This document shows positions 7,672 through 51,086 of a stretch of DNA of 56,645 nt, one piece after another. The notes under the pieces were generated by a model. The model saw nothing but the letters and a program-made list of their open reading frames with translations, had not been told where the DNA came from and did not search any database. Every line of letters begins with the position of its first letter. Positions within the stretch are counted from its first letter, which is position 1. Location of the stretch: the IMG/VR virus record IMGVR_UViG_3300021354_000516, positions 1-56,645 of that record. One strand, given 5' to 3'. A program made the translations under genes and the position numbers. This stretch comes from a virus.

Positions 7672-10600
7672 ATGGCTACACCACTTCAATCACCGGGCGT
7701 ACAAGTTTCAATAATAAATGAAAGCTTTTATACCCCAGCGGCACCAGGAACAGTTCCGCTAATTTTCGTTGCTTCGGCAAGTAATAAATTAAATCCTTCA
7801 GGAGCAACAGCCGTTGGCACAGCTCCAGTAAATGAAGGTAAAGTTTACCTAATAACAAGCCAAAGAGATCTTGTTGATACATTTGGCACACCATTGTTTT
7901 ACACTGATTCTTCAGGTAATCCGATACATGGTGGAGAATTAAACGAATATGGCTTACAAGCAGCTTATTCATTACTTGGTGTAAGTTCAGCAGCTTATGT
8001 TGTTCGTGCTCCAATTGATTTAGCTAGTTTAGTAGCAAAATCAAGTGCACCAGCAGGAGATCCAGCAGATGGTAGTTATTGGGTCAACACCGCTGACTCA
8101 TTATTTGGTATTTTTGAATGGAACAAGGTAAAAGGCACATTTACAAATAAAGTTCCACTTATAATAGATGATACTAATGCAAGTTTAAATTACAATAGCA
8201 ATGCACCTAAATCAAGTTTTGGTTTAGTTGGACAATACTGTATAGTGTTAAATCAACCAACTGTATCTGTTGATGATTCAGTAGTAACGGTATTCTATAA
8301 AAATTCAGATGCTAACTGGGTTGAAGTTGGTTCACATCATGACTCTTCTTTTACAACAAACAGTGCTAATTCAACTTTTATCAGTACAACTTGGTCAACC
8401 AGTCAACCTGCTGTAGTAGGAACCGGTACACCAAGTTCTGTTTCAATTAATAATAGTTCAACATTTACTATTAACGGAACAACTGTTGGAATTGCAAACA
8501 GTGATTCAGTTTCAGTAATTGCAGGAAAAATTAATGGTGCATTCCATACAACTGCAGGTGTTGGTGCAAAAGTAATAAAAGGTGCATTAGCATTATACTT
8601 AGATTCGTATAAAGCAAGTTCTTTTACACTTGCAGTATCAACTGATCTAGTAACTTCATTAGGAATTAGTTCAGGAACATATACTGCTCCTTCATTATTT
8701 GTTGGTCCACATACACAATATCCAGATTTTAGTTTAAAATCATCAGGTTCATTGTATTTAAAAACTACTTCACCAAATGAAGGTGCTAGTTGGATTGTTA
8801 AACAATGGTTAGCTACTTCAAATGCATTTAATACTGTAAAAGCTCCGATATATTCAAATGTAACAGCCGCAACTTATCAATTAGATAAAGTAGGTGGTGG
8901 AGCAAATATTCCAGTTGGAACAGTTTTTGTTGAAAGCAATTTTAACCATGGAGATAATTCTTCATCAACAAGTGTGATATTAGGAAATTTCAAAGTTCAA
9001 AGACGTGTTGCTGTAACTCCGACAACTATCACAGGTGCAGTTCATAATAACGCTGTAGCAATTTCAACTGCAACGTTGAAAATTGAAACAAGTTCTGCTG
9101 GTATTTCAGGTTATGTAAACACAGGAACTTTAACAATTCAAGGTTCATCAGATGGTTTAAATGCAGTTGTTAATGCAATTAACAATTCCGGAATTGAAAA
9201 TTTAGTTGCTACATTAAATGACGCTGGTACAGATTTGTATTCAGTTTCAATTAAACACACAGAAGGCGGAGAAATTCGTTTTACTGATAATGCAAATGTA
9301 TTAGGAACTGTTGGTTTTAGTAATTCAACATCTAATTTTTATTCATTAGATGCAGCGATTGAACCTTCAAAAGCAACACATCGTGCAAGTAATTGGAAAC
9401 CATTAACATTTACAGCATCTGATGTTGCACCAAGTACAACTCCTGCAAATGGACAATTATGGTATAGTTCGATTGTTGACCAAGTTGATATTATGGTACA
9501 CAACGGAAGTGATTGGAAAGGTTACCGAACTGTATATCCAGCTACAGATATCAATGGTCCAATAATAAGTGCTTCAGAACCAACAAAACAAAGTGACGGA
9601 ATAACAGATCTTGTAAATGGTGATATTTGGATAAGCACTGCTGATATTGAACGTTATGGTAAAGACATTTATGTTTATAATGGCTCTTCTTTAACATGGA
9701 TTCTTCAAGATACAACAGATCAAACTTCTCCAACCGGTTGGTTATTTGCAGATGCACGTTGGGCAACAAGTGGTCAAGCAACTTCTGCTAGTTCGATTAA
9801 AGATTTATTGTTATCTGACTATGTTGATCCAGATGCTCCAGATCAAGCTGAATATCCACGCGGTATGAGATTATGGAACTTACGTCGTTCAGGATTTAAT
9901 GTTAAACGTTTTGAAACAAATTATATTGATATTAATGCAAATGATGGTAAAAACTTACGTTATCAAAATGATCCGTTAAGTGATTATAATGTTAATCGTT
10001 GGGTTTCAGTAAGTCCTAATAATGCAGATGGTTCAGGAACATTTGGTCGCCATGCACAACGTTCATTTGTTGTTTCATCATTTAAATCAGTAATTGATAG
10101 TAACATATCAGCGCGTGATACTGATACATTAACATTTAATTTAATTGCAACACCTGGTTATCCAGAAGCAATTCAAAACATGGTATTGTTAAACGTTGAT
10201 CGTGGGTTAACTGCGTTTGTTATTGGTGATACTTCTTTCCGTTTAAAACCAACAGGTACTGATTTAGTAAATTATGGATTAAACAGAAACGGTGCTTTTG
10301 ATAACGGTGATGAAGGTCTTGTATCATATAATGAATACCTAGCTGCATTTTATCCAAGTGGTTACACTAATGACTTATCAGGAAATTACATTGTAGTTCC
10401 GCCAAGTCATATGATGTTACGTACTATTGCGTTAAGTGATCAAAAAAGTTATCCTTGGTTTGCACCAGCAGGTGTACGTCGAGGTGTAATTGACAATGCA
10501 ACATCAGTCGGTTATCTTGAAAATGGTGAATTTAAAGCAACTGCATTGCCAGAAAGTATTCGTAATGTAATGGCACAAAATGGTCATATTAATCCAATTG

Positions 10601-11001
10601 CAACAATTACAGGTGCTGGTATTATTAACTTTGGTCAATATACTCGTGCAAATGCAGCAAGTTCATTAGATCGAATCAACGTAGCACGTTTAGTAGCGCA
10701 TTTACGTCGTCAGTTAGATATTTTAGCTCGTCCGTTCTTATTTGAACCGAATGATAAAATTACACGTAATGAAATCAAAAATGCAGTACAAAAACTATTA
10801 CTTGAATTAGTTGGACAACGTGCATTGTATGATTTTATTGTAGTTTGTGACGAATCAAATAACACACCTGCAAGAATTGACCGCAGTGAATTATGGGTAG
10901 ATGTTGCTATTGAGCCAGTTAAGGCGGTAGAATTTATCTACATCCCAGTGCGCTTAGTTAACACTGGTGCTATTAAAGCTGGATCATTCACTCTAGCTTA
11001 A
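7672..11001 (+). CDS. 18: Contractile tail sheath protein gp18
   Basis: The N-terminus (SPGVQVSIINESF, then DLVDTFGTP and a YGLQAAYSLLG-VVRA stretch) and the C-terminus (FLFEPNDKITRNEIKNAVQK, LLELVGQRALYDF, VCDESNNTP, IEPVKAVEFIYIPVRL) are those of gp18 tail sheath proteins. The protein is 1109 aa against 659 in T4. The extra length is a large middle insertion rich in Ser and Thr, with three related segments of the form P-x-GxxW-...-NGSxW (near residues 139-160, 590-620 and 645-680). These would be displayed on the outside of the sheath. An AGGAG site precedes the ATG. It is followed after 30 nt by the tail tube gene. Confidence 0.9.
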   Translation: MATPLQSPGVQVSIINESFYTPAAPGTVPLIFVASASNKLNPSGATAVGTAPVNEGKVYLITSQRDLVDTFGTPLFYTDSSGNPIHGGELNEYGLQAAYSLLGVSSAAYVVRAPIDLASLVAKSSAPAGDPADGSYWVNTADSLFGIFEWNKVKGTFTNKVPLIIDDTNASLNYNSNAPKSSFGLVGQYCIVLNQPTVSVDDSVVTVFYKNSDANWVEVGSHHDSSFTTNSANSTFISTTWSTSQPAVVGTGTPSSVSINNSSTFTINGTTVGIANSDSVSVIAGKINGAFHTTAGVGAKVIKGALALYLDSYKASSFTLAVSTDLVTSLGISSGTYTAPSLFVGPHTQYPDFSLKSSGSLYLKTTSPNEGASWIVKQWLATSNAFNTVKAPIYSNVTAATYQLDKVGGGANIPVGTVFVESNFNHGDNSSSTSVILGNFKVQRRVAVTPTTITGAVHNNAVAISTATLKIETSSAGISGYVNTGTLTIQGSSDGLNAVVNAINNSGIENLVATLNDAGTDLYSVSIKHTEGGEIRFTDNANVLGTVGFSNSTSNFYSLDAAIEPSKATHRASNWKPLTFTASDVAPSTTPANGQLWYSSIVDQVDIMVHNGSDWKGYRTVYPATDINGPIISASEPTKQSDGITDLVNGDIWISTADIERYGKDIYVYNGSSLTWILQDTTDQTSPTGWLFADARWATSGQATSASSIKDLLLSDYVDPDAPDQAEYPRGMRLWNLRRSGFNVKRFETNYIDINANDGKNLRYQNDPLSDYNVNRWVSVSPNNADGSGTFGRHAQRSFVVSSFKSVIDSNISARDTDTLTFNLIATPGYPEAIQNMVLLNVDRGLTAFVIGDTSFRLKPTGTDLVNYGLNRNGAFDNGDEGLVSYNEYLAAFYPSGYTNDLSGNYIVVPPSHMMLRTIALSDQKSYPWFAPAGVRRGVIDNATSVGYLENGEFKATALPESIRNVMAQNGHINPIATITGAGIINFGQYTRANAASSLDRINVARLVAHLRRQLDILARPFLFEPNDKITRNEIKNAVQKLLLELVGQRALYDFIVVCDESNNTPARIDRSELWVDVAIEPVKAVEFIYIPVRLVNTGAIKAGSFTLA

Positions 11002-16316: not shown

Positions 16317-17930
16317 ATGGCAAAATCACTCGACGGCAACTTAATTAAAAGTGCCAACAAAAAACAAAAGTTTACAGAACAAGATCTACTTGACATCTCA
16401 TTATGTATAAACGATCCTCACTATTTCCTTAAGAATTTTTTCTTTATTCAACATCCTACTAAAGGTAAGATGAAATACGATGCATTTGAATATCAAAAAG
16501 AATTATTAGATAGTTATAACAATAATCGATTTAGTGTTAATATGCTAGGACGGCAGATGGGAAAAGCATTATCACTCGATACTCCTATTATAACACCAAC
16601 AGGATTTACCACAGTTGGTAATATTAAAGTAGGTGATACAATATTTGGTAGGAACGGAAAAACAACAAATGTAACATTTATTACTGAAATAATGAACGAT
16701 CGTCCGTGCTATGAAATAGAATTTACTCACGGTGATACCATTATTGCTGATGCAGAGCATTTATGGAACATCCAATTACCAAAAAAAGAAAGTGAAATCA
16801 CTATTACTACTTTAGAATTAATATCACACTTTAATAAATTAAAAGATACAACACAGAGTTTACATATTAAATCATCTGAATGTTTAGATTTTGATTTTAC
16901 ACCTGTTCCGATTGATCCGTATTATCTCGGACTATGGTTAGGTGATGGCAGTAGTAAAGATACTAGAATTACATGTTCTATTGATGATTATTCAGAATAT
17001 TTAAATTTCTTTAAAACAAATAATATTACCTTATCTCCTTTTAAACTTGATTCTCTTTCAACAAAAACCGGAACATTTTATGTTCCTGGTGGTGCAAGTA
17101 AATTAAAAGATTTAGGAGTATGGGGGAATAAGCATATTCCAGATCAATATATTTTTAATAGTAAAGAAGTTCGTTTAGAATTACTAAAAGGATTAATGGA
17201 TTCAGTTGGTACTTGTGAAAAATCAGGAGTTTCTAGATTTTATCAAAGTAATGAGACATTTATAGATCAAGTGAGATTATTATTATCAACCTTAGGAATT
17301 AAATCAACTAAAGGAGTGAATGAAACAACTCACAAAGATTGCTATACATTATGTTTTGCAGAAAAAACATTGGAGATCTTTAAATTACCAAGAAAATTAG
17401 AAAGACAACAATTGTTATTTGATCATCAACAGAATAAAAGATTTTATATTAAAGATATTAAATTGATAGATAGTGTACCAGTTCGATGTCTTCAGGTTGA
17501 TAATATAGATCATATGTTCTTATGCGGTACTACTTTAATACCAACCCATAATACAACCACAGCAGTTGGATATCTACTTTGGTATGCAATGTTTGTTCCT
17601 GATAGCACTATTTTAATCGCCGCACACAAATATACAGGTGCTAAAGAAATTATGCAAAGGTTACGCTATGCATACGAAACATGTCCTGATCATATTCGTT
17701 GCGGTGTAACAAGTTATAATAAAGAAAGTATAGAATTTGATAATGGTAGTCGTATTGTTGCACAAACAACTACAGAAACAACCGGTCGTGGTATGTCTTT
17801 ATCTTTACTTTATTGCTTAGATGGCGAAAGTACTACTGTTAAGGTTAGAAATAAACAAACATTGGTTGAGGAAGATATAACTCTTAAAGAATTATACACA
17901 AGATTGTATAATCCATTAATCATAATTTAA
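16317..17930 (+). CDS. 17: Terminase large subunit N-part, with complete intein and split-intein N-half
   Basis: The 537-aa product contains four pieces. Residues 1-83 are the terminase ATPase N-terminus up to GRQMGK. Residues 84-412 are a full intein. Residues 413-499 continue the ATPase from TTTAVGYLLWYAMF to GRGMSLSLLY. Residues 500-537 are the N-half of a split intein starting with Cys. Removing the first intein restores the Walker A GRQMGK-TTT, equivalent to the T4 gp17 motif. The extein stops exactly before Walker B, which is encoded in the gene at 18890. Three steps are therefore needed to make active gp17: cis-splicing, association of the split halves, and trans-splicing. The spliced extein total would be 522 aa (83+87+352). 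Confidence 0.92.
   Translation: MAKSLDGNLIKSANKKQKFTEQDLLDISLCINDPHYFLKNFFFIQHPTKGKMKYDAFEYQKELLDSYNNNRFSVNMLGRQMGKALSLDTPIITPTGFTTVGNIKVGDTIFGRNGKTTNVTFITEIMNDRPCYEIEFTHGDTIIADAEHLWNIQLPKKESEITITTLELISHFNKLKDTTQSLHIKSSECLDFDFTPVPIDPYYLGLWLGDGSSKDTRITCSIDDYSEYLNFFKTNNITLSPFKLDSLSTKTGTFYVPGGASKLKDLGVWGNKHIPDQYIFNSKEVRLELLKGLMDSVGTCEKSGVSRFYQSNETFIDQVRLLLSTLGIKSTKGVNETTHKDCYTLCFAEKTLEIFKLPRKLERQQLLFDHQQNKRFYIKDIKLIDSVPVRCLQVDNIDHMFLCGTTLIPTHNTTTAVGYLLWYAMFVPDSTILIAAHKYTGAKEIMQRLRYAYETCPDHIRCGVTSYNKESIEFDNGSRIVAQTTTETTGRGMSLSLLYCLDGESTTVKVRNKQTLVEEDITLKELYTRLYNPLIII
16566..17552 (+). mobile_element. Intein 1: class-3-type intein with LAGLIDADG endonuclease, in Walker A
   Basis: The 329-aa intein starts with Ala (ALSLDTPIITPTG), not Cys or Ser, and ends PTHN before a Thr. 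A Trp in block B (HLW, residue 150 of the host protein), a Cys in block F (VPVRCLQVDN, residue 391) and the Thr of PTHN (residue 410) form the WCT triplet that defines class 3 inteins, which splice through an internal Cys instead of the N-terminal residue. Two LAGLIDADG-like helices, YYLGLWLGDGSS (202-213) and LELLKGLMDSVGTC (287-300), show a monomeric homing endonuclease that looks intact. Insertion is between the Lys and Thr of Walker A. Confidence 0.88.
17814..17930 (+). mobile_element. Split intein 2, N-half (38 aa)
   Basis: After the extein residues SLLY the frame enters CLDGESTTVKVRNKQT..LKELYTRLYN and stops at TAA 17928-17930. The N-terminal Cys, the following Gly-Glu-Ser/Thr turn and the ELYTRL helix match the unusually short N-half of the AceL-TerL split intein, also found in phage large terminases. 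Typical split inteins (DnaE) break after about 100 residues, so this break is atypical. Confidence 0.85.
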
Positions 17931-17932
17931 GT

Positions 17933-17950
17933 GACGAGTTTGCATTTGTA
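17933..17950 (+). other. Ghost of the Walker B extein (DEFAFV)
   Basis: Two bases after the stop codon of the N-half, GACGAGTTTGCATTTGTA encodes DEFAFV, the same six residues found at the start of the C-extein (19223-19240, GATGAATTCGCATTTGTG). The two agree at 14 of 18 bases, and all four differences are synonymous. This is not in frame with either neighbouring gene. It looks like a remnant of an uninterrupted or differently split ancestor of the terminase gene, kept at the edge of the endonuclease insertion. Confidence 0.65.
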
Positions 17951-17956
17951 TAAATA
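17949..17956 (+). promoter_or_regulatory. Late promoter box for the free-standing endonuclease
   Basis: TATAAATA overlaps the end of the DEFAFV ghost. The predicted leader of about 26 nt before the ATG at 17988 is AT-rich with AACC and AAAAAT but no convincing ribosome site. Confidence 0.55.
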
Positions 17957-17987
17957 CATTTTTAAAATTAACCTTAAAAATTCAATT

Positions 17988-18923
17988 ATGCAAACTAAAC
18001 TTGAAAAATTTATAAAAAGAAATAGAAGACGTAATAAACATTTATACGATAATAATTTAACCGCCGGAGTTGATTATATTATATGTCCATTTAGCAACGA
18101 AAGGATGAGTATGATTAAATCATCGTATATTGAAAAAGTATTATTAATGACTGTTAATGATTACGATCGGTTATATCCTGGAGTTAGAGGGGTTTCTGAA
18201 AAACGTAAATCAAATATTAAGCAAGGGTTACATTCAATTGATCAGTCTTCAGGATTAACAAAATATCAAGTGTCTCAATTAAAGGCAAAAGAAGTTCTTC
18301 AAACAATAGGCAAAGATGGCCTATCTGGATATGCTCGTAAAGGACAAAAAACTAAACAAACTCACATGAATAATATTGACGAGTTTGGAAGAAATGGATA
18401 CACTCGCCAAGTTTATAATCGTCTAACAACAATATTACCAAACGGGTTAACTGTAGAAGAAAATGCACATCTAAAACAAAAAGAAACTTTACTAATTAAT
18501 AATATTTCCGGTACAGGTGGAGCAAGTAAGGTTTCTAAGAAAAAATTAAAACCAATATTAGAGTTTTTAGAAAAAAATAATATAGAATTTTATTTTGATA
18601 AATCCGAATATGGAATTAAAGATACCGATACAAATAATTATTATTTTTATGATTTAACCATACTAAAATACAATATTGCAATTGAATATCAATCAAGTGC
18701 ATGGCATTCAAATCCTATCTGGGATGAAATTAAATGGAATAGCTGGTGTCCACCACGTGGAAAGAAAAAAACAGCTTTAGAATCGTTAACTTACGATTAC
18801 AATAAAGCAAAATCATTATATAAATTTCGTAATATTGTTACGTATTATGTATGGGAAGACTCGGCAGAAAATGATGTTAAGGATATAATATGTTTGCTTC
18901 AAACACTGAATACGAAATATTAA
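17988..18923 (+). CDS. Free-standing EDxHD-type homing endonuclease inside the split intein
   Basis: From the ATG at 17988 (MQTKLEKFIKRN) the protein is 311 aa; an upstream GTG at 17931 is in frame but precedes the promoter. The N-terminal half is basic with DNA-binding-like segments (SGLTKYQVSQLKAKEVLQTIG, DEFGRNGYTRQVYNRL). The C-terminal third has the Vsr-like nuclease pattern of the fractured-gene endonucleases: EYGIKD, then YDLTI, IAIEYQSSAWHS and VTYYVWED. In such loci the endonuclease cuts alleles without the insertion and spreads the cassette. Its last 34 nt overlap the start of the terminase C-part, whose AAGGA ribosome site lies inside this gene. Confidence 0.8.
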   Translation: MQTKLEKFIKRNRRRNKHLYDNNLTAGVDYIICPFSNERMSMIKSSYIEKVLLMTVNDYDRLYPGVRGVSEKRKSNIKQGLHSIDQSSGLTKYQVSQLKAKEVLQTIGKDGLSGYARKGQKTKQTHMNNIDEFGRNGYTRQVYNRLTTILPNGLTVEENAHLKQKETLLINNISGTGGASKVSKKKLKPILEFLEKNNIEFYFDKSEYGIKDTDTNNYYFYDLTILKYNIAIEYQSSAWHSNPIWDEIKWNSWCPPRGKKKTALESLTYDYNKAKSLYKFRNIVTYYVWEDSAENDVKDIICLLQTLNTKY

Positions 18924-19219
18924 CACCAAATGGTTGGTGTAATTTTAACGGAATTACAGAAGTAGCCGGTAAAATAACTCATTCAATAAAATTAAAAAAT
19001 GGTGAAATAGTATCTGCGACTGCTGGTCATTATTTTTTTATTAATGATAGAAAAATTAAATTACAAGATCTTTCTATTGGAGATTTTATTGATACAATTT
19101 CTGGACCTCAACAAATAATAGAAATTAAAGAAAATTTAAAAACAACAGTATATGATATTGTTGAAGTAGATAATGAAAAACATCAATTTATTGTAAACCA
19201 TTGTTTTATAACAAAAAAT
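18890..19219 (+). mobile_element. Split intein 2, C-half (110 aa)
   Basis: The opening MFASNTEYEILTPNGWCNFNGI closely follows the AceL-TerL C-half pattern. The body contains GEIVSATAGHYFF (block B-like with His), GDFIDT and the F-block VYDIVEVDNEKHQFIVNHCFI. It ends TKN before Cys: the penultimate His usual at this point is Lys, while the terminal Asn and +1 Cys are present. Confidence 0.87.
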
Positions 19220-20278
19220 TGCGATGAATTCGCATTTGTGCCACCTAATGTTGCAAGCGAGTTTTGGACTTCAATATCGCCTACATTAGCAACAGGTGGT
19301 AAAGCAATTATTACATCAACACCTAACTCAGATGAAGATCAATTTGCACAAATTTGGAGTGAAGCCAATAAACGATTTGATGAATTTGGTAACGAACAAG
19401 CAATAGGTCGAAACGGATTTGCACCTTATATGGCACTTTGGAGCCAACATCCAGACCGTGATAAAAAATGGAAGAACGAAGAAATAGCACGGGTAGGGGA
19501 AGAACGCTTCAGACGTGAACACAATTGTGAATTTTTAGTATTCGATGAAACACTTATTAATTCTATAAGTTTATCTGATTTAGAAGCATCAAATCCTATA
19601 ATGAATATGGGACAAGTTCGATGGTATCGAAAGATTGATCCAGATGCAACATATATTGTTAGTTTAGATCCGTGTTTAGGCACAGGTGGAGACTATGCAG
19701 GAATTGAAGTTTTAGAAATTCCAAGCTTTCATCAGGTTGCAGAATGGCATCATAACACAACCCCAATACAAGCACAAGTTCGTATTATGCGTGATATTTG
19801 TAAACATATTGAAGATGAATGTACAAGACAAGATAGATCGATAAGTTTATATTTTTCAGTCGAAAATAACACAGTCGGTGAAGCTGCGTTAGTTTCGATA
19901 AACGAATTAGGTGAAGAAACTTATCCAGGTATGTTTTTAAGTGAACCGATTAAAAAAGGTCATGTACGTAGATATCGTAAAGGATTTAATACCACACATA
20001 AATCTAAATTAGCAATTGCTGCTAAGTTAAAACAGTTAATTGAAAATAAAACTTTAAAGATTTACAGTAAACCACTAATTAGTCAACTTAAAGCATATGT
20101 TGCTAAAGGACTTAGTTTTGAAGCTAAAACCGGAGAGAATGATGACCTAGTAGCTAGCCTATTACTAAATATTCGTATGGTTATGATGCTACAAGATTGG
20201 GATCCAAGTGTATATGAAAAGATGCATGAACATGTAAGTGAAGAGTTGATTTTGCCAATGCCAATCTTCGTTGGATAA
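18890..20278 (+). CDS. 17: Terminase large subunit C-part, starting with split-intein C-half
   Basis: Residues 1-110 are the C-half of the split intein, from MFASNTEYEILTPNG to FITKN, and residues 111-462 are terminase. The extein starts CDEFAFVPPN, the Walker B Asp-Glu, followed by the coupling motif ITSTPN and the packaging nuclease: SLDPCLGTGGDYAG, FSVENNTVGE and GENDDLVASLLL carry the acidic metal ligands. The start is set by the ATG at 18890 with AAGGATATAAT upstream, inside the endonuclease gene. No promoter is seen here, so expression should depend on read-through from the endonuclease transcript or on the 16304 promoter. T4 gp17 is 610 aa against 522 here after splicing. Confidence 0.92.
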   Translation: MFASNTEYEILTPNGWCNFNGITEVAGKITHSIKLKNGEIVSATAGHYFFINDRKIKLQDLSIGDFIDTISGPQQIIEIKENLKTTVYDIVEVDNEKHQFIVNHCFITKNCDEFAFVPPNVASEFWTSISPTLATGGKAIITSTPNSDEDQFAQIWSEANKRFDEFGNEQAIGRNGFAPYMALWSQHPDRDKKWKNEEIARVGEERFRREHNCEFLVFDETLINSISLSDLEASNPIMNMGQVRWYRKIDPDATYIVSLDPCLGTGGDYAGIEVLEIPSFHQVAEWHHNTTPIQAQVRIMRDICKHIEDECTRQDRSISLYFSVENNTVGEAALVSINELGEETYPGMFLSEPIKKGHVRRYRKGFNTTHKSKLAIAAKLKQLIENKTLKIYSKPLISQLKAYVAKGLSFEAKTGENDDLVASLLLNIRMVMMLQDWDPSVYEKMHEHVSEELILPMPIFVG

Positions 20279-33164: not shown

Positions 33165-34166
33165 TTGACAAACTTAATAACTAATACCGTCCTCTCCTAT
33201 TGGAAAATGGGCAGAAAAACAAAACAAACTCCGACTGGGTGGATCTCTGGTAATGCGGTCTGTTGTCATCACCGAGGGGAAGCAACAGATAAACGCAAGA
33301 GAGGCGGGATATTAGTCACAAATGACGGGTTTAATTATTCATGTTTTAACTGCAATTTTAAAGCAGGTTGGGTGCCTGGAAAGTTGTTTAGTAAAAATAC
33401 ACGTAACTTTTTATCTTGGATAGGAATCAATGATAATGAAATTCAAAAGTTATCACTTGAAGCACTTAAACAAAAAGAAGATCAACCAAAACCAACTAAA
33501 GAATTAAATCTTGAATTAGAAACAAAATCATTACCTAATAGTTGTAAAACATTTAATGAATGGATAACTGAAGGATGTGAAGATCCTAAATTTTTAGAAG
33601 TTATCGGGTATGTACTTGAAAGAGGTATGGAGTTAGACTGGTTTGAATGGATGTGGGCAGATGAAAATGGTTTTAGAGATCGTATAATCATTCCATTTTT
33701 CCAAGATGAAAGAATAGTAGGATGGACGGGCCGAAAAATTGTTGATGGGAAACCAAAATACTTAACTACTACGCAACCGGGATATGTATTCAATATTGAT
33801 AGACAAACTGATGACAGAACTGTTGTTATTGTTGTTGAAGGGCAATTTGATGCAATTGCAGTTGATGGTTGTGCAATAATGCACAACGATCCAAACGAAG
33901 TTCAAATAATGCGTATCAATGCATTAGCAAGAGAAGTTATTGTTGTACCAGATCGAGATAAACCTGGTGCAAAAATGATAAAAACCGCAATGGAACAAAA
34001 TTGGTCTGTTAGCCTTCCTGAATGGGGAGATGGTATAAAGGATGTTGCAGATGCTGTAAAGAAATATGGAAGGGTTTATACACTTTTTACTATTTTAAAA
34101 TACAGAGTTAATGGTCAAATAAAGCTTAACTTACTAAGGAAAAAATTAGAAAATGTCAAAGAATGA
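33165..34166 (+). CDS. 61: DNA primase gp61
   Basis: The 333-aa protein has an N-terminal zinc ribbon (AVCCHH at 32-36 with CFNC at 60-63) and a TOPRIM core with VVEGQFDAIA and VVPDRDKPG, the acidic residues of phage primases, plus RIIIPFFQDERIVGWTGR. The start is a TTG at 33165, giving MTNLITN, since the first in-frame ATG would remove part of the N-terminus before the zinc ribbon. gp61 makes RNA primers in complex with the gp41 helicase, which overlaps it by 14 nt. Confidence 0.88.
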   Translation: MTNLITNTVLSYWKMGRKTKQTPTGWISGNAVCCHHRGEATDKRKRGGILVTNDGFNYSCFNCNFKAGWVPGKLFSKNTRNFLSWIGINDNEIQKLSLEALKQKEDQPKPTKELNLELETKSLPNSCKTFNEWITEGCEDPKFLEVIGYVLERGMELDWFEWMWADENGFRDRIIIPFFQDERIVGWTGRKIVDGKPKYLTTTQPGYVFNIDRQTDDRTVVIVVEGQFDAIAVDGCAIMHNDPNEVQIMRINALAREVIVVPDRDKPGAKMIKTAMEQNWSVSLPEWGDGIKDVADAVKKYGRVYTLFTILKYRVNGQIKLNLLRKKLENVKE

Positions 34167-35595
34167 TATCCAATTACCGAATTATAGTTACGACATTCAA
34201 AAGCTTTATCTTGAAATGTTTATGAGTGATGCTGTAACATTTATAAGATGTCAAAACATATTTGATCCTGAGAATTTTGATAGAAAACTTCAAGAGGCTG
34301 CAACTTTCATTACTGATTATGTTAATGAATATAAAGTAATGCCAGAAGCAATTATTGTTAATGCAAGTTGTGATACCGAGTTAAATCCAGTTGCATTACC
34401 TGAAGAAAACTATTCTTGGTTAATGAATGAATTTGAACAATTTAGTCGACATAAAGGATTAGAAAGAGCTATTATTAAATCATCTGATCTCCTTGAACAA
34501 GGAAACTATGGACCAGTTGAAAAGTTAATCAAAGATGCAATTCAAATATCTTTAAACAAAGATATGGGTACAGATTATTTTGAAAATCCTAGAGGACGAC
34601 TTGAACTACTAAAGAATAGTAATGGACAAATTAGTACAGGTTGGCCAAGCGTTGATAAGAAATTATACGGTGGTTTTAATAGAGGTGAACTCAATATTTG
34701 GTGTGCGGCATCAGGTGGTGGTAAAAGTTTATTCTTAGCAAATTTAGGGTGTAACTGGGCATTGGCAGGATTAAATGTTTTATACTTAACATTTGAGTTA
34801 AGTGAGAATCTAGTTGCAATGCGTATGGATAGTATGTTAACTGATATTCCAACACGTGATATATTTCGTAATTTAGATGATGTCGAACTTAAAGTTAAAA
34901 TGATGGGAAAACAAGCAGGAAGTGTACAAATTAAGTATATGCCTTCGGGAAAAACTGCAAACGATTTACGAGCCTATTTGAAAGAATATCAGGTCAAAAA
35001 AGGCTTCAAACCAGACATTTTATTAATAGATTACCTCGATTTGATGATGCCGATGAGTATCAAGGTAAGTCCTAGTGATTTGTTTGTAAAGGATAAATAT
35101 GTTAGCGAGGAATTAAGAAATCTCGCAATGGAAACCCAAGCAATTGTTGTTACAGCAAGTCAGTTAAATCGATCAGCGGTTGAAGAAATCGAGTTTGATC
35201 ATAGTCATATTTCAGGTGGCTTATCAAAGATTCAAACTGCTGATAATGTAATAGGTATTTTTACAAGTCGTGCAATGAAAGAACGAGGACGTTATCAAAT
35301 ACAATTTATGAAAACACGGTCAAGTAGTGGTGTAGGACAAAAAGTTGATTTAGAATTTGATCTAGATAGTTTGCGTATTAAAGATTTAGGTGAAGATGAA
35401 GGATATAGCAGTGCTCCTAAACCGAGTATATATGAAGGATTAAAGAAAACTTCGACTGTTGTTGATCAAGGAACAGGTGAAATTATTAGAGGAAGTGATC
35501 CGACTGCAGGAATTAATGTGGGTAAAGTCAAAGGTGTTACACAAAGTAGTAAGATAAGAGAAATGCTTAGTAATTTAAACGCAGAAAAAGATTAA
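34153..35595 (+). CDS. 41: Replicative DNA helicase gp41 (DnaB family)
   Basis: The 480-aa protein has the RecA-like DnaB core: ISTGWPSVDKKLYGG, Walker A SGGGKS (187-192), FELSENLVAMRMD (H1a-like), DILLIDYLDLMMP (Walker B) and QLNRSAVEEIEF...HISGG. It unwinds DNA ahead of the phage polymerase. In metagenomic relatives gp41 is one of the genes most often split by inteins, but here it is uninterrupted, followed directly (1 nt) by a free-standing homing endonuclease gene. Confidence 0.92.
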   Translation: MSKNDIQLPNYSYDIQKLYLEMFMSDAVTFIRCQNIFDPENFDRKLQEAATFITDYVNEYKVMPEAIIVNASCDTELNPVALPEENYSWLMNEFEQFSRHKGLERAIIKSSDLLEQGNYGPVEKLIKDAIQISLNKDMGTDYFENPRGRLELLKNSNGQISTGWPSVDKKLYGGFNRGELNIWCAASGGGKSLFLANLGCNWALAGLNVLYLTFELSENLVAMRMDSMLTDIPTRDIFRNLDDVELKVKMMGKQAGSVQIKYMPSGKTANDLRAYLKEYQVKKGFKPDILLIDYLDLMMPMSIKVSPSDLFVKDKYVSEELRNLAMETQAIVVTASQLNRSAVEEIEFDHSHISGGLSKIQTADNVIGIFTSRAMKERGRYQIQFMKTRSSSGVGQKVDLEFDLDSLRIKDLGEDEGYSSAPKPSIYEGLKKTSTVVDQGTGEIIRGSDPTAGINVGKVKGVTQSSKIREMLSNLNAEKD

Positions 35596-35596
35596 A

Positions 35597-37063
35597 ATGG
35601 ATGAACGTCAATATATTTTAAATTTATGGAACGAGTCTCCTAGAGTAGCAACTCATATTCTAAAGAGCAAAAATCCCAAATTATACTATCAAATTGATCA
35701 AATTGAAGGTAACTCTTTTTCAGAAAAAGCATGGAAATGGGTATATTCTAGAAATAATAGTTGTCTCGAATGCGGGTGTCCTACTAAATTTTTAGATTTT
35801 CGTCGAGGTTTTGCAATATATTGTAGTAGAAAATGTGTTGCAAATAATCAAACTATAAGTATTAAAAAAACAAAAACAAATCAAGAAAAATACGGAGTTG
35901 ACCATTTTTCAAAAACTGATCAGTATAAAGAACAGTTTAAAACAACTATTTTTGAAAAATATGGAGTTGAAAATCCCGGTCAAATATTAGAATTAAAACA
36001 GAAAAGAGCAAGGCAAAAACAATTAACATTCTTTAATAATATTATTGATAAAATTAAAGAATTTTCTATACCAAATTTTACATTTGACAATTATACAGAA
36101 GTTCGAGATTCACAATTATCTTGGACTTGTAAACTATGCAATGTTTCGTTTAATTCGAATATTTTTGGAAGATTACCAAAATGTACAACATGTTTTCCGA
36201 TTGGAAATTTTGGGGGTCAAAGCAGTATTGAAAAAGATATTTTAGAACATATTAGACAATTTTATAACGGGATTATTATTGAAAATTCAAGAGAAATTAT
36301 TTCTCCAAAAGAACTCGATTTATATTTTCCTAATGAAAAATTTGCAATTGAAATAAATGGAGTTTATTGGCACAGCGATAAACATCTAAGCAACACATAT
36401 CATTATGAAAAATTTAAATTATGCAACGATTCTCAGATAACTTTGTTAATGATAACCGATGAAGAATGGACTCGTAATAAAGAATTAATATTATCAATGA
36501 TAAAACATAGATTAGGTATTAGTAAAAATAAAATTTTTGGAAGAAAATGCAAATTAAAGGAAATTAATAATAAACTTGCACATCAATTTTTAGAAAAATA
36601 CCATATTAACGGATATTGCAAATCATCAGGACATTTAGGTTTATATTTTAATGAGCAATTAGTTTCAGTTTTTTCATATTCAACAAAAAATAGATTTAAA
36701 AAAGAAAATAACGAAATTGAAATTATTCGATTAGCGTTTTCTTCCTCAGTAATTGGCGGATTAGGAAAATTTATTTCGTTTATCAAACAATCATACCCGG
36801 GAAAAAAAATTATAACTTTTGCTGATTTAAGATATGGTGAAGGGAAAGTCTATGAAAAAAATAATTTTAAATTTATAAAAACAACCCCACCAGGATATTG
36901 GTATTTCTTAAATGGTCAAATGTATCATAGATTGTCGTGGCAAAAGAAAAACCTTGTTTCATTAGGTTATTCCAAAGATAAAACTGAAAAAGAAATAATG
37001 AATGAGTTAGGTGCCATAAGAATTTACGATTGTGGACATAATTATTTTGAATTAGGTGATTAA
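35597..37063 (+). CDS. Free-standing Vsr/EDxHD-type homing endonuclease after gp41
   Basis: The 488-aa protein has zinc knuckles (CLEC 56-59 with CSRKC 76-80; CKLC 178-181 with CTTC 196-199), two KYGVENP/KYGVDHF repeats (near 97-128) typical of phage homing endonuclease DNA-binding regions, and the nuclease core ELDLYF...FAIEINGVYWHSD (239-261) with ITLLMITDEEW. A C-terminal domain with LGLYFNEQLVSVFSYSTKNRF and ITFADLRYGEG follows. It starts one base after the gp41 stop and probably moves as an inserted gene. No own promoter is visible. The target is expected in or near gp41, by analogy with related loci. Confidence 0.82.
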   Translation: MDERQYILNLWNESPRVATHILKSKNPKLYYQIDQIEGNSFSEKAWKWVYSRNNSCLECGCPTKFLDFRRGFAIYCSRKCVANNQTISIKKTKTNQEKYGVDHFSKTDQYKEQFKTTIFEKYGVENPGQILELKQKRARQKQLTFFNNIIDKIKEFSIPNFTFDNYTEVRDSQLSWTCKLCNVSFNSNIFGRLPKCTTCFPIGNFGGQSSIEKDILEHIRQFYNGIIIENSREIISPKELDLYFPNEKFAIEINGVYWHSDKHLSNTYHYEKFKLCNDSQITLLMITDEEWTRNKELILSMIKHRLGISKNKIFGRKCKLKEINNKLAHQFLEKYHINGYCKSSGHLGLYFNEQLVSVFSYSTKNRFKKENNEIEIIRLAFSSSVIGGLGKFISFIKQSYPGKKIITFADLRYGEGKVYEKNNFKFIKTTPPGYWYFLNGQMYHRLSWQKKNLVSLGYSKDKTEKEIMNELGAIRIYDCGHNYFELGD

Positions 37064-43357: not shown

Positions 43358-46192
43358 TTATCTAGTTATTTTTTTATAAGATATTATATCTAAAAACAAT
43401 TGAAATTCAGAATCAGATGATGCAATTAATTCGATTGTTTTTCCAAGTTCGTTTTCAAATTGTCTCTTTTCTAATGTTCCAAATGGTAAGTTAATCACTT
43501 CATTTATATATAATGTTTGATATAAACTTTGAATAAAATTAAAACTATTTTTTAATAACCAACTATCCTCTGTCGGAATTATTTTGTTGAACCATAAATC
43601 AAATATTTCTTCAAGCTTCGATAAATCTCCACGATTTTGACAAATTGAACACAATAATCCCATATAGTAATATTGCGCCATTGTAAAATTTGGTCTTTGT
43701 TTATAGTTTTTTACTATTAGATCAAAATATCGATCTTCAATTTTTTCATTTCGAACCGGTCTGTTAATTGTTCCATAATGAGCAATAAATGATATATGTT
43801 GAAACAAACATTTACTTATCCACCCTTCATCTTTTGTAGGGTATTCATGAACAACTCCGGTAAAATAAATTCCGTTATTTTTAAATAATCTATCATGATA
43901 TGGTGAGTCATATTCGTTTGTATCACCATATACAATACAATGTTTTTGATGAACTAATATACTATTATAATAATCCGAAATAATAAACTGAACTAATTGT
44001 GTTTTATGAATCAATTCTTCATCTGCATCCATCCAGAGAATATAGTCCCCAGAACACTTACTTAAACTATAATTTCTAGCAGCAGAAAAGTTACCTAGAC
44101 CATCGTCTTCTTCCCATGTATAATCATATATTTTATCAGTATATTTTTTTGCAATACGTTTAGTATCATCTGTGCTTCCGGTATCAACAATAACAATTTC
44201 ATCTACAATATCATAAAAAGACTTAATACATCTATCAAGATTATTTTCTTCATTTTTTACAATCATACTAGCAGATATCTTTTTATAAGGTCGAGTTTTA
44301 ATAAACTTATCTTGATAATTTGGTTTATAAAATGACGGGATATTATCTGGTTCAACTGAAAAATAATAAACCCAATGAGTTAGAAGTTCACCTTTTCTTC
44401 CAATACTATTAGTATTTGAATTAACAATTTTTAAATTTGTTTCTTTAAATATTTCACGTATATCATTTAATTCAAAATGATGCATGTGTTCAATTTTAGG
44501 TTTATTTTTTTCAATATTATCCCACGGGCCTGCTGGAGTTGTAAAAACAAATGTTGTTTTCTGTTTTACTATTAACATTAATTGATTTAAAAATCCAACT
44601 GTATCTTCGATGTGTTCTAAAATTTCACCTATAATTACAAAATTTGTATCAATATTATAATTCGTAAGATTTAAAATATCATCGTTAATTAGTTTAATTT
44701 GGTCATATTTTGATTTTAAATTTTTTTCTAAAACTTGTAATGCTGGTGAACATTTTTCGTATGCATAATATTTTTCAATATAAAAATAAAAGCGTTCTAA
44801 AACATAAAATGCTAATTCTCCATCGTGTGACCCGATATCTAAAATTTTTAAATTATAATTTAAATCAGTGATATTTTTTTTAAGTATTTCTATAACAGTT
44901 GTTAATCTATCTGTTAAATTATAACTAGATTGCATTCTTTCGACATATGTATCTTCAATATTATTATCTTTAAGAGATTTTTCAACAAGTTCGATGTATT
45001 TTTGTTCACCTGTTAACTCTTTTACAGCAACTAAATCAGACATATAGATTAATTGATCTAATATTGCTTGTTTATTGTTGTTACTTCTTTCTAAAAACAT
45101 CGAGTTTATTTTCTCATCCCAACTTTTTGCAATATTACTCCAAGAATATGACTGTATTAACTCTTTAGCTTTTAATACTTCTTGATCATATGTTTCATTT
45201 GTATATTTGTTAAGAATTTCTAAAAATTCATTGTCATATTCATTATCACCTACCAAATAATATAAATCTTCATTCCATTCATTATTAAAATTACGATTTG
45301 AAACTTTAGTATCACTTTTAATAGTTTCAGATAATGCAAATCCGTCAGAACTTACAACTAAACATCCAGATGCTTGTGCTTCAATTGCATTAATACAAGA
45401 AATCTCTGGAAAATTACAAGTATATATCATATAAGCAGATTGACTTAGTAACTTATAATATTCATTTTTTGTTAAACTTCCATGATCTATAAGATTAGTC
45501 GAGTTACTTATTAATTTTTTACTTTGTTCATAATATGATGTAAGATATTCACTTTCATTTTTTACTAACGGATTATCATATCCACATAAATGTAATATTG
45601 CAGATGGATTTGTTTCTAAAATTTTTGGCCAAATATCAGTTAGAAGTTTAACTAACCCTCTTTCAGGTCTAGAAGAATAAATGTAATTATTTTTCTTGTC
45701 TGTAAAAGGAATAATCGGTTGAATTAATGTTTCATCAAACCCATTTGTTGTATTCCAAAAAATGTCATCTTCTATATTAAAATGTTTTTTAAAAAGAAAT
45801 TTTTGAAAATTTGATAAACAAAAAATCGAATCAACTTTTGATAATGAAAGTTCTGGATTTTGAATTGAAATATCATGTATCCAAAGAATAATAAGTTTTG
45901 AATCAATCGGTTTAGCTAAAAAATGTGTAAATCTTGAAATGATGCAAACATCAAATTGTGATTTTTCATCTTGCATAAAGGTATGACAATGTCGATAATC
46001 AACATTGTCATAAATGCCAGGTTTATCACATTCACAATAAACAGTAACATCATTACCTAAAATTGCCAATTCTTTAGCCATATATATAAGTGCAGATTCC
46101 GAACCGCCTATCGCTGTGTAATTTAAAGAGTTTCCATTAAAGTTCAATCCGCTAGTAACTAATGCAATAGTTTTTTTCATATTTTTACTCAT
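43358..46192 (-). CDS. Trifunctional GT4-methyltransferase-GT2 protein
   Basis: The 944-aa protein starts at the ATG at 46192 (MSKNMKKTIALV), overlapping the previous stop by 8 nt; earlier in-frame codons lie inside that gene. The first 380 residues are a GT-B, GT4-like domain (AIGGSESALIYMAKEL, YSSRPERGLVKLL, FPEISCINAIEAQASGC). Residues about 390-620 are a class I methyltransferase (LKILDIGSHDGELAFYVL, VIIGEILEHIED). Residues about 640-890 are a GT-A, GT2 domain (SASMIVKNEENNLDRC, VDTGSTDDT, YILWMDADEEL). Three catalytic units in one chain suggest that a sugar chain is built and capped by methylation. Confidence 0.85.
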   Translation of the reverse strand: MSKNMKKTIALVTSGLNFNGNSLNYTAIGGSESALIYMAKELAILGNDVTVYCECDKPGIYDNVDYRHCHTFMQDEKSQFDVCIISRFTHFLAKPIDSKLIILWIHDISIQNPELSLSKVDSIFCLSNFQKFLFKKHFNIEDDIFWNTTNGFDETLIQPIIPFTDKKNNYIYSSRPERGLVKLLTDIWPKILETNPSAILHLCGYDNPLVKNESEYLTSYYEQSKKLISNSTNLIDHGSLTKNEYYKLLSQSAYMIYTCNFPEISCINAIEAQASGCLVVSSDGFALSETIKSDTKVSNRNFNNEWNEDLYYLVGDNEYDNEFLEILNKYTNETYDQEVLKAKELIQSYSWSNIAKSWDEKINSMFLERSNNNKQAILDQLIYMSDLVAVKELTGEQKYIELVEKSLKDNNIEDTYVERMQSSYNLTDRLTTVIEILKKNITDLNYNLKILDIGSHDGELAFYVLERFYFYIEKYYAYEKCSPALQVLEKNLKSKYDQIKLINDDILNLTNYNIDTNFVIIGEILEHIEDTVGFLNQLMLIVKQKTTFVFTTPAGPWDNIEKNKPKIEHMHHFELNDIREIFKETNLKIVNSNTNSIGRKGELLTHWVYYFSVEPDNIPSFYKPNYQDKFIKTRPYKKISASMIVKNEENNLDRCIKSFYDIVDEIVIVDTGSTDDTKRIAKKYTDKIYDYTWEEDDGLGNFSAARNYSLSKCSGDYILWMDADEELIHKTQLVQFIISDYYNSILVHQKHCIVYGDTNEYDSPYHDRLFKNNGIYFTGVVHEYPTKDEGWISKCLFQHISFIAHYGTINRPVRNEKIEDRYFDLIVKNYKQRPNFTMAQYYYMGLLCSICQNRGDLSKLEEIFDLWFNKIIPTEDSWLLKNSFNFIQSLYQTLYINEVINLPFGTLEKRQFENELGKTIELIASSDSEFQLFLDIISYKKITR

Positions 46193-46886
46193 TTTTAAAA
46201 TTAAAATTAAAAGATTTATCAACAATACGAGGAAATATTTTATTATATTCTTCTGTTTCTTTATTAAAATTTACTTCAAGATTTTTGCCAGAATCTCCAA
46301 CTACTGAAGAAGTTATTGCTCCAGCATGATAATGAAATAAATCGTCGATCATATAATTTTGAAGACCTCTATAATGACATTGATCAAACATAAAATTATC
46401 TCCATACGCTAGCAATATATTAGGCGGAATATCAATCCAATTATCTTTATGCATAAAAAATAAAACACCATAACCCCAAATAGATTGTCCAGTAAATGGA
46501 GTAAATTCTATTTTACCTTTTTTAACCTGGACTAACCCATTTTCTACTTTTTGCTCAGATAAACATACACATCCCATTTCTTTAGTTAAGAACGTAGAAA
46601 TTTTATATAATAATTTTATATCAAATATGCAATCATCACTTAAAAAACACAAAAGCTCAGAGTTACTGTCAAGTGCACCGCAGTTCCATGCAGGGTTACA
46701 ATAAATGTTTTTACCAAAACTTACTATTTTTACTTTCGGATGTTTTAATACTTCTAAATCAGGTTTATTAGCTGTATCATTGTCAATAATAAAAAATTCA
46801 GATACAACATCAACTTTTAAAATATTTTCAACTAAATCCCAAAAAGGTTGATATTTCCACATTGTAGGTACTATTACTCGTATCAT
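46185..46886 (-). CDS. Glycosyltransferase family 2-like protein
   Basis: The 233-aa protein, starting at the ATG that overlaps the sulfotransferase stop (ATGA at 46886), begins MIRVIVPTMWKYQPF and has FFIIDND, PAWNCGALDSNSELLCFLSDDCIFD (GT-A core with an SDD acidic motif) and IWGYGVLFFMHKDNW. The motif set fits small GT2-like enzymes in phage and bacterial glycan clusters. It is coupled to both neighbours. Confidence 0.72.
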   Translation of the reverse strand: MIRVIVPTMWKYQPFWDLVENILKVDVVSEFFIIDNDTANKPDLEVLKHPKVKIVSFGKNIYCNPAWNCGALDSNSELLCFLSDDCIFDIKLLYKISTFLTKEMGCVCLSEQKVENGLVQVKKGKIEFTPFTGQSIWGYGVLFFMHKDNWIDIPPNILLAYGDNFMFDQCHYRGLQNYMIDDLFHYHAGAITSSVVGDSGKNLEVNFNKETEEYNKIFPRIVDKSFNFNFKNE

Positions 46887-50700: not shown

Positions 50701-51086
50701 GCTGTTTGAAACCAACCACCTCCTACAGTTTTCCAATTATTTCCTTGCGCTACGGTTTGAACCGGTGAACTTCTACCAGTAACGGTTGTATTATCACCAA
50801 GTTCTCCATACAAATTATATCCGCAGGACCATAAAGTTCCATCAGTTTTTATTGATGTAGTATGATAATACCCACACGAAACTTGTTTCCAATTACTTCC
50901 TTGCGCTACGGTTTGAACCGGTGAACTTCTACCAGTAACGGTTGTATTATCGCCGAGTTGTCCTAAATGATTTCGTCCCCAACTCCATAAATTTCCTTGA
51001 GTAAAAAATTCCCTTGGAACTAAAAAATTTCCAATATCTTCATTTTGGCTATCTGAATTATTAACAAGAAATCCTGTATTTTCCAT
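47721..51086 (-). CDS. RCC1-repeat protein A (21 repeats), probable tail fibre/adhesin
   Basis: After a short N-terminus (about 30 residues), the 1121-aa protein consists of 21 RCC1-type units of about 51 residues, each with the core KTDGTLWTWGxNxxGQLGD, a variable SSPVQT segment and W-K-QVSCG. RCC1 repeats fold as blades of seven-bladed propellers, and 21 equals three full propellers. Late expression, gene size and position beside other adhesin-like genes suggest a virion fibre or receptor-binding protein; a secreted effector is an alternative. There is no signal peptide. A TTTAAATA box and AAGGAAAA ribosome site precede the ATG at 51086. Confidence 0.8.
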   Translation of the reverse strand: MENTGFLVNNSDSQNEDIGNFLVPREFFTQGNLWSWGRNHLGQLGDNTTVTGRSSPVQTVAQGSNWKQVSCGYYHTTSIKTDGTLWSCGYNLYGELGDNTTVTGRSSPVQTVAQGNNWKTVGGGWFQTAGIKTDGTLWIWGENTYGALGDNSTTNKSSPVQTVVRGTNWKLVTGGRWHSAAIKTDGTLWTWGNNVNGQLGDSTTVTGRSSPVQTIAFGTDWKQVSCGEIFSAAIKTDGTLWTWGDNAYGQLGDNSSTLRSSPFQILASSNIWKQVTVSTYSTAAIKTDGTLWSWGSNTKGQLGDNTQTDQSIPNQTIAGGTNWNQVSSSVDGTVAIKNDGTLWTWGDNTSGQLGDSSNSSTVSARSSPVQTIAGGNTWQQVSGGNRSTTAIKKDGTLWTWGHNFSGELGDSTTTNRSSPVQTIALGNNWKQVSCGQSSPSLPDSNHTGAVKTDGTLWTWGNNVNGQLGDNTSSDKSSPVQTLTGTYDWKQVACGIAFTAAIKTDGTLWTWGNNGTGQLGDGTITVKYQPVQTIALGTNWKQVSAGVSHIAAIKTDGTLWTWGNNASGQLGDSTQTSRSQPVQTIAPGTDWKQVACGQLFTAAIKTDGTLWTWGSNPFGQLGDSTQTSRSSPVQTITGGTTWQQVACGQSFTAATKTDGTLWTWGFNGTGQLGDSTQASRSSPVQTIALGTNWKQVSAGSIHTVAVQADGTLWTWGRNNLGQLGDSTQTDRSIPIQTIVGGTNWNQVACGGNFTSAITKDGTLWTWGDNVWGQLGDSSNNSTVPARSFPVQTIAFGTNWQQVACGQNFTSAIKNDGTLWTWGLNSSGQLGDNTATSKSSPIQTLASSNNWQQVSMGYNFTSAIKTDGTLWTWGLNSNGKLGDSTTTSRSQPVQTIAGGTNWKQVACGQLFTAAIKTDGTLWTWGNNTYGKLGDNTRTSRSSPVQTIALGTDWQQVAGGYQHTSAIKTDGTLWTWGFNNSGELGDNTATYKSSPIQTLASSNNWKQVSCGRRSLAAVKTDGTLWTCGYNGDGELGDNTTTNRSLPVQTVAQGNNWKQACGGSYQTAGIKTDGTLWIWGYNAYGQLGDNSTTDKSSPVQTVVRGTNWKQLSGGRHHTSAIIEND
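48942..49055 (-). repeat. 114-bp block shared with RCC1 gene B
   Basis: This segment of gene A, encoding the blade containing SAGSIHTVAVQADGTLW, is identical over 114 bp to 51937-52050 in gene B, whereas surrounding blades differ at many synonymous sites. Confidence 0.8.

What the first reader, a model, noticed from the sequence alone, without database searches (positions are those of the whole stretch)
16317..20278. Large terminase interrupted by two different inteins, both placed in the ATPase active site
The gene is broken at Walker A (a contiguous class-3-type intein with LAGLIDADG, between K and T of GRQMGK/TTT) and at Walker B (a split intein directly before C-DE of LLY/CDEFAF). The two halves of the catalytic site are therefore both hidden until splicing. 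DNA packaging then depends on one cis-splicing and one trans-splicing reaction by unrelated mechanisms. Seen directly: motifs and boundaries. Known: each intein class and terminase sites are separately known. I am not aware of a described terminase with both at once.
Basis: partly seen in the sequence, partly recalled or inferred. Interest (0 to 1): 0.9.

Follow-up and report, generated by a model that had tools for sequence, protein, structure and literature searches.

The report
Phage packaging motor with two inteins
A phage's DNA-packaging enzyme is interrupted at both halves of its ATP-burning site by two self-removing protein elements, one of them split across two genes; this pairing recurs in related phages, two-intein versions were already published, and the newer find is an untranslated copy of half the target site sitting at the promoter of the element's own DNA-cutting gene.

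Summary
A T4-gp17-type large terminase (16317-20278) has a contiguous class-3-type intein at Walker A (GRQMGK/TTT) and a split intein at Walker B (LLY/CDEFAF), with a free-standing nuclease gene between the split halves. Relatives with 99-100% identical central segments have both sites empty, which fixes both boundaries and a 522-aa spliced product. It is not a misassembly: 15 other metagenomic contigs carry the same pair. It is also not unique. Two-intein terminases are published (cyanophage Mic1, a crAss-like phage), and GenBank phages SCTP-2 and vB_VmeM-32 have both Walker motifs interrupted in other combinations. The evidence favours selfish homing elements: patchy distribution, recent intein transfer, decayed LAGLIDADG motif, and a swapped nuclease+IntC cassette beside an unchanged IntN. 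"Unrelated mechanisms" is too strong.

New here: between IntN and the nuclease gene lies an untranslated copy of the right half of the empty target site (codons for DEFAFV) running into a TATAAATA box. It occurs in 41 of 46 loci with a full nuclease and varies almost only at codon third positions. Similar copies precede other nucleases at a third intein site. It most likely acts as a homing-site-like operator, as for T4 I-TevI. No splicing or binding was tested.

The parts
16317..16565 (+). terminase large subunit, N-extein (83 aa, ends in Walker A GRQMGK)
   Evidence: contiguous with the middle extein in empty-site relatives
16566..17552 (+). contiguous class-3-type intein (329 aa): A1, W67, C308, T327, N329; LAGLIDADG domain with the second catalytic Asp replaced by Val
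   Evidence: PDB match to MchDnaB/MsmDnaB class-3 inteins; 12-sequence alignment; AlphaFold model pLDDT 92.5, best folds PI-SceI and class-3 DnaB inteins
17553..17813 (+). terminase middle extein (87 aa), TTTAVGYLLW..SLLY, rest of the P-loop up to Walker B
   Evidence: 99-100% identical in several intein-free relatives
17814..17930 (+). IntN of the split intein (38 aa, Cys1) and stop codon
   Evidence: length close to GOS-TerL IntN of 37 aa (PMC11766414)
17930..17956 (+). untranslated copy of the right half of the empty homing site (AGTGACGAGTTTGCATTTGTA, out of frame 'SDEFAFV*') running into a TATAAATA promoter-like box
   Evidence: 19/21 match to empty-site exteins of relatives, 15/21 for the best unrelated place in the window; present in 41/46 full-nuclease loci
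17988..18923 (+). free-standing putative homing endonuclease (311 aa) with invariant D222, E233, H240; Vsr-like (EDxHD-like) catalytic half
   Evidence: weak fold match to E. coli Vsr
18890..19219 (+). IntC of the split intein (110 aa, C-terminal Asn), start overlaps the nuclease gene by 34 nt
19220..20278 (+). terminase C-extein (352 aa), starts with Cys+1 and Walker B acid pair DE, then nuclease domain

Best explanation
This is a T4-gp17-type terminase of a probable large myovirus, invaded at two neighbouring homing sites by two selfish intein systems. (1) A class-3-type intein sits between Lys and Thr of Walker A. It is expected to splice in cis through its internal block-F cysteine (C308). 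Its LAGLIDADG endonuclease has probably lost activity. (2) A 'fractured gene' sits at Walker B. A 38-aa IntN with Cys1 ends the first gene. A free-standing Vsr-like nuclease gene follows. A 110-aa IntC begins the second gene. The two gene products are expected to associate and trans-splice (class 1, AceL/GOS-TerL-like), giving a 522-aa terminase with both Walker motifs restored. The nuclease presumably cleaves intein-free terL across LLY-CDEFAFV and drives copying of the cassette. (3) Right after IntN, an untranslated copy of the right half of that target runs into a TATAAATA late-promoter-like box in front of the nuclease gene. The best reading of that element (about 0.55 on its own) is an operator that lets the nuclease repress its own gene, as T4 I-TevI does. 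Shown here: anatomy, empty sites, recurrence, mobility footprints, conservation of the copy. Inferred: splicing, cleavage, repression.
For: Boundaries: relatives with 99-100% identical middle extein have GKTTT and LLYCDEFAF uninterrupted. Recurrence: 16 of 202 scorable loci, including the window, have the class-3-type intein at A plus an insertion at B. Class-3 residues are invariant in 12/12, with structure support. IntC resembles CatC; IntN and IntC sizes (38/110) resemble GOS-TerL 37/115. Mobility of intein 1: L049 and L050 inteins differ at dS 0.26 while the three extein segments have pS 0.67-0.94 (dS 1.65 or more, or saturated), with the identity step at the intein ends. Mobility of the B cassette: L053 and L054 are 98.8% identical except the nuclease catalytic half plus IntC (35% aa identity), the right edge exactly at the IntC/extein junction, IntN identical. 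The window's extein nests among intein-free relatives (starred 6-row set). Half-site copy: 41/46 full-nuclease loci, 38/46 with an intact box, 0/8 truncated-nuclease loci with an intact box; variation at wobble columns 25/85 cells versus 7/187 elsewhere, p 7e-9 (column permutation p 5e-4); TATAAATA is gene-start associated (44/94 excluding these copies, against 2-22% for permuted octamers). I-TevI precedent: operator 15/20 identical to the homing site and overlapping a late promoter (PMC2988022).
Against: No experiment. The window is a fragment, so a second intact terL elsewhere in the genome cannot be excluded. IntN alone has no PDB match. The nuclease has no Pfam or PDB sequence match and its fold match is weak (Vsr, E 0.013; model pTM 0.42). 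At site C the same kind of copy precedes nucleases of different families (HNH, GIY-YIG-like), which could also mean a shared relic of how the fracture arose rather than an operator bound by each nuclease. The half-site survives in 6/8 loci with a truncated nuclease.
Confidence: 0.85

Rival explanations
1. The half-site copy at 17930-17950 is only a footprint of the event that fractured the gene (the target's right half was duplicated when the nuclease cassette went in) and has no present function.
For: It sits directly after IntN in nearly all cassettes, with unrelated nuclease types at two sites, and it persists in 6/8 loci with a truncated nuclease.
Against: It is missing from loci that have lost the nuclease altogether (a comparable element in only 1-2 of 24). 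It varies almost only at third codon positions although not translated in that frame, and its wobble bases do not track the locus's own extein (2.59 versus 2.48 of 5), so it is neither decaying freely nor freshly recopied. In most loci it joins a TATAAATA-type box 4-5 nt before the nuclease ATG.
Confidence: 0.35
2. The two inteins are a regulatory device: the phage keeps the packaging ATPase off until conditions allow both splicing reactions, as proposed for the two inteins of cyanophage Mic1 TerL.
For: Both insertions hit the ATPase centre, so the unspliced protein should be inactive; published suggestion for Mic1 (PMC7156551).
Against: Patchy distribution with repeated gain and loss (AB 5-7 changes, B 15, A 9 on the tree), intein-free relatives 93% identical in extein, recent homing. 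Conserved active-site codons are also simply good homing targets.
Confidence: 0.08
3. A broken terminase, with the working copy elsewhere in the phage genome; the pieces do not splice.
For: The window is only a 56.6-kb fragment.
Against: All splicing residues are intact; frames are open; purifying selection on exteins and inteins (dN/dS about 0.05-0.2 where dS is not saturated); the same layout recurs in 15 other contigs.
Confidence: 0.05
4. Assembly chimera that joined parts of two genomes.
For: Metagenomic contig.
Against: Same order of all seven parts in independent assemblies from different samples, e.g. L051, L053, L054, L175, L242.
Confidence: 0.01

Closest known systems
AceL-TerL / GOS-TerL / Cat-TerL atypical split inteins
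   Same: Split intein in phage terminase, very short IntN (25-37 aa) and long IntC (104-115 aa), Cys+1; IntC profile matches CatC
   Different: Here at Walker B (LLY/CDEFAF), in a terminase that also carries a class-3-type intein at Walker A; nuclease gene with target-mimicking promoter region in between
Fractured genes with split inteins and Vsr-like nucleases (Dassa et al. 2009, known from citations and memory; paper not held)
   Same: IntN gene, free-standing Vsr-like homing nuclease, IntC gene in a row
   Different: Half-site copy plus TATAAATA box in front of the nuclease; nuclease half and IntC exchanged as a unit between close relatives (L053/L054)
Class-3 inteins of phage TerL and mycobacterial DnaB (MsmDnaB, MchDnaB)
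   Same: A1, W, C, T, His-Asn end; P-loop insertion between Lys and Thr; LAGLIDADG domain in phage forms
   Different: Second catalytic Asp of the endonuclease replaced (GLMDSVG); paired with a split intein in the same protein
Two-intein terminases: cyanophage Mic1 (PMC7156551), crAss-like OBYQ01000140 (PMC7886860)
   Same: Two inteins in one TerL
   Different: Per the text read, Mic1 has one in the ATPase and one in the nuclease domain, and the crAss-like pieces are described as in frame; here Walker A and Walker B, with one intein split
Salicola phage SCTP-2 and Vibrio phage vB_VmeM-32 (GenBank MF360958, KU160494)
   Same: Both Walker motifs of TerL interrupted by inteins
   Different: SCTP-2: split at both, three scattered genes, plus a third contiguous intein. 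VmeM-32: split at A, contiguous at B
I-TevI autorepression in T4 (PMC2988022)
   Same: Homing-site-like sequence overlapping a late promoter just upstream of the nuclease ORF
   Different: I-TevI is intron-encoded GIY-YIG; here split-intein cassettes with Vsr-like or HNH nucleases, and the mimic is the right half of the insertion site; binding not tested

Membership tests
Class 3 intein | no nucleophile at position 1 | tested here: met
   Ala1 in 12/12 aligned copies
Class 3 intein | WCT triplet (W in N3, C in C2:4, T in C1:5) | tested here: met
   W67, C308, T327 invariant in 12/12; definition from PMC7891396
Class 3 intein | splicing through the internal-Cys branched intermediate | not testable with these tools
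   needs biochemistry
LAGLIDADG homing endonuclease (intein 1), active | acidic residue in both LAGLIDADG motifs | tested here: not met
   first motif LGLWLGDGS intact, second GLMDSVG has Val for Asp; most relatives have GLMDxDG
Atypical split intein (AceL/GOS-TerL type) | short IntN, long IntC, Cys1 and Cys+1, in TerL | tested here: met
   38/110 aa, Cys1, Cys+1; CatC profile match E 2.6e-10
Atypical split intein (AceL/GOS-TerL type) | trans-splicing activity | not testable with these tools
   needs expression of both halves
Fractured gene (split intein with free-standing nuclease) | IntN and IntC on separate ORFs with a nuclease ORF between | tested here: met
Vsr-like (EDxHD) homing endonuclease | conserved catalytic acid/His set in a PD-(D/E)XK-like fold | tested here: inconclusive
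   D222, E233, H240 invariant in 11 relatives; best fold Vsr, E 0.013 prob 0.98; no sequence-level PDB or Pfam match
T4-type large terminase (gp17) | Walker A, Walker B and RNase H-like nuclease domain in one protein | tested here: met
   gp17 PDB matches to both halves; Terminase_6N/6C just under the Pfam cut-off; phrog_36964
Homing-site-like operator (I-TevI type) | target-like sequence overlapping the nuclease gene's promoter | tested here: met
   target-like sequence adjoining a promoter-like box; that the box is a promoter is inferred
Homing-site-like operator (I-TevI type) | nuclease binds it and represses transcription | not testable with these tools
   needs gel shift and reporter assays

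The most novel reading that the evidence does not exclude
Split-intein homing cassettes in phage terminases carry a built-in, wobble-tolerant mimic of half their own target site fused to a late promoter, used by different nuclease families (Vsr-like, HNH, GIY-YIG) at two different intein sites as an autorepression operator; and the nuclease half plus IntC can be exchanged as a unit while the same IntN is kept, so one IntN works with two very different IntCs.
Probability: 0.5. Interest if true: 0.75.

Novelty: new variant of a known kind. Interest (0 to 1): 0.6.

Why it matters
Terminase is essential, so the phage presumably depends on one cis- and one trans-splicing event per terminase, at adjacent catalytic motifs, and this pairing has arisen several times. 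The conserved half-site copy makes a concrete, testable claim about how split-intein nucleases avoid harming their host phage: a target-mimicking operator. The sequence comparison also gives the nuclease's likely base preferences (codon positions 1-2 fixed, wobble free). L053/L054 offer a natural pair of divergent IntCs for one IntN, useful for understanding and engineering split-intein specificity.

Tried and rejected
Misassembly: rejected by 15 contigs with the same layout. Group I intron or other RNA between the halves: no Rfam match anywhere in the window. TATAAATA as a simple count enrichment: 8 in the window, no more than the roughly 18 I estimated from base composition, so the claim rests on position before gene starts and not on number; in the window alone only 2 of 8 precede a long ORF. 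Local co-conversion between the two sites in the window lineage: synonymous divergence of the middle segment is as high as the flanks, so the 99-100% protein identity is constraint. A peptide-level offset test for the copy was weak at site B because the copy is short and ends in a stop; the DNA-level test was used instead, and its null is conservative because random windows can contain the true extein site. No copy of this kind at site A. A single-protein scan with the nuclease found no confirmed relatives; alignment-based queries found many. A statistical link between A and B occupancy was not claimed because the searches were seeded with intein-bearing queries. The original fractured-genes paper was not held.
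Full report
OBSERVATION. The window is an IMG/VR virus fragment of 56,645 bases. The finding is in the sequence as described. Translation gives N-extein 16317-16565, intein 1 16566-17552, middle extein 17553-17813, IntN 17814-17930, IntC 18890-19219, C-extein 19220-20278, and a joined extein of 522 aa. The joined extein aligns over 94-98% of its length with the terminases of phages such as PA5oct and MIJ3 (53-56% identity). Each half matches T4 gp17 in the PDB.

BOUNDARIES AND CHANCE. tblastn of the pieces against the IMG/VR relatives found many terminases in which N-extein, middle and C-extein are contiguous. In L057, L058, L021 and L022 the middle extein is 99-100% identical to the window's. 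This fixes the insertion points K/T and Y/C without assuming intein motifs.

WHAT EACH INTEIN IS. Intein 1 matches the class-3 DnaB inteins of mycobacteria (E 3e-26). It keeps A1, W67, C308, T327, H328 and N329 in 12 of 12 relatives; the WCT definition is from PMC7891396. Its predicted structure (pLDDT 92.5) matches PI-SceI and the class-3 DnaB inteins. The second LAGLIDADG motif is GLMDSVG where most relatives have GLMDxDG, and some other relatives also lost the Asp. The splicing part is therefore kept while the nuclease part decays. The split intein has a 38-aa IntN and a 110-aa IntC; the IntC profile matches CatC, the consensus atypical intein (E 2.6e-10). GOS-TerL has 37/115 aa (PMC11766414). 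The free-standing nuclease has an invariant D, E, H set and a weak fold match to Vsr. In other loci the same N-terminal half is joined to an HNH-type catalytic half.

HOW COMMON. Of 202 loci in which both sites could be scored, 16 (window included; about 12 distinct) have the class-3-type intein at A with an insertion at B. Four of these also have a third insertion near CEFLVFDE. A further 7 have another kind of insert at A plus B, 49 have B without an A insert, and 123 have none. The set was seeded with intein-bearing queries, so these are not population frequencies. Deposited phages add SCTP-2 (split at A and at B, three scattered genes at about 429.5, 256.8 and 216-218 kb, plus a contiguous third intein), VmeM-32 (split at A, contiguous at B), Atu_ph07 (split at A), RaK2 and fENko-Kae01 (class-3-type at A) and Campylobacter phage F352 (split at B).

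MOBILITY. L049 and L050 share intein 1 at dS 0.26, while the extein segments around it have pS 0.67-0.94 (dS 1.65 or more, or saturated). The step in identity is at the intein ends. L053 and L054 are 98.8% identical except for the nuclease catalytic half plus IntC; the right edge is exactly the IntC/extein junction, IntN is identical, and the two IntCs share 35% of residues. L048 has lost the nuclease and keeps IntN and IntC about 20 nt apart. On the extein tree the window falls in a well-supported set of six whose other five members are intein-free (nearest L063, 93%), and the double state needs 5-7 changes. This is the pattern of homing elements coming and going.

THE HALF-SITE COPY. Just after the IntN stop, out of frame, the window reads AGTGACGAGTTTGCATTTGTATAAATA. 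The first 21 nt match the empty-site extein of relatives at 19/21; the best unrelated place in the window, and the window's own extein, reach 15/21. The same element, followed by a TATAAATA-type box and then the nuclease ATG after 4-5 nt in nearly every case, is present in 41 of 46 loci with a full nuclease, 38 with an intact box (in the window itself the first ATG of the nuclease frame lies 31 nt after the box). Loci with a truncated nuclease keep the half-site in 6 of 8 but an intact box in none; nuclease-less loci lack it with one or two exceptions in 24. Taken by position before the box rather than by motif score, 17 distinct copies vary at 25 of 85 wobble cells and 7 of 187 other cells (p 7e-9; column permutation p 5e-4; cells are not independent by descent). 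The copy's wobble bases do not follow the locus's own extein. TATAAATA elsewhere in these contigs lies 3-25 nt before an ORF start in 44 of 94 cases, against 2-22% for permuted octamers. At the third site, five loci have the matching copy of EFLVFDE running into a TAAATA box before HNH or GIY-YIG-like genes. T4's I-TevI has an operator 15/20 identical to its homing site overlapping its late promoter and represses itself (PMC2988022). I therefore favour an operator, with 'footprint of the fracture' as the main rival.

COMPARISON AND NOVELTY. Class-3 TerL inteins, TerL inteins at the P-loop between Lys and Thr (mycobacteriophage TerL1-a) and in the Walker B motif (TerL1-e) are described (PMC5050341), as are split TerL inteins and two-intein TerLs. 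The Campylobacter IBB_35 report of a terL with an intein and a nuclease-bearing 'intron' may be a similar case. The pairing here is thus a new variant of a known kind, recurrent rather than unique. I found no held paper on a target-mimicking element in split-intein cassettes, but most subscription papers are not in the library.

LIMITS. Nothing was tested at the bench. The phage genome is incomplete. The element's role and the nuclease's activity are inferences.

Noticed in passing
L003, L011, L017 (Salicola phage SCTP-2, MF360958): TerL encoded in three scattered genes joined by two split inteins (Walker A and Walker B), with a further contiguous intein about 20 residues after Walker B; needs two trans- and one cis-splicing.
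   Followed up: partly
L006, L019 (Vibrio phage vB_VmeM-32, KU160494): TerL split at Walker A (IntN gene near 80.0 kb, IntC gene near 1.1 kb) and with a contiguous intein at Walker B.
   Followed up: partly
L053:6363-7158 versus L054:3153-3970: Nuclease catalytic half (HNH versus Vsr-like) and IntC exchanged as one block between 98.8%-identical phages with identical IntN.
   Followed up: partly
L078, L121, L180, L202, L225 near the CEFLVFDE site: Split inteins at a third TerL site with HNH or GIY-YIG-like genes preceded by a copy of the downstream extein (KFVIFDE..) and a TAAATA box.
   Followed up: partly
window 47721-51086, 51160-53499, 54188-55900 (-): Three large RCC1-repeat proteins in a row (8-20 RCC1 repeats each).
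   Followed up: no
window 7672-11001: Tail sheath protein of 1109 aa matching phrog_10581 over its whole length; long for a sheath.
   Followed up: no
window 35597-37063: ORF matching phrog homing/HNH endonuclease families directly downstream of a DnaB-like helicase gene (34153-35595).
   Followed up: no
window 43358-46225 (-): 955-aa ORF with a group 1 glycosyltransferase, a methyltransferase and a family 2 glycosyltransferase domain.
   Followed up: no
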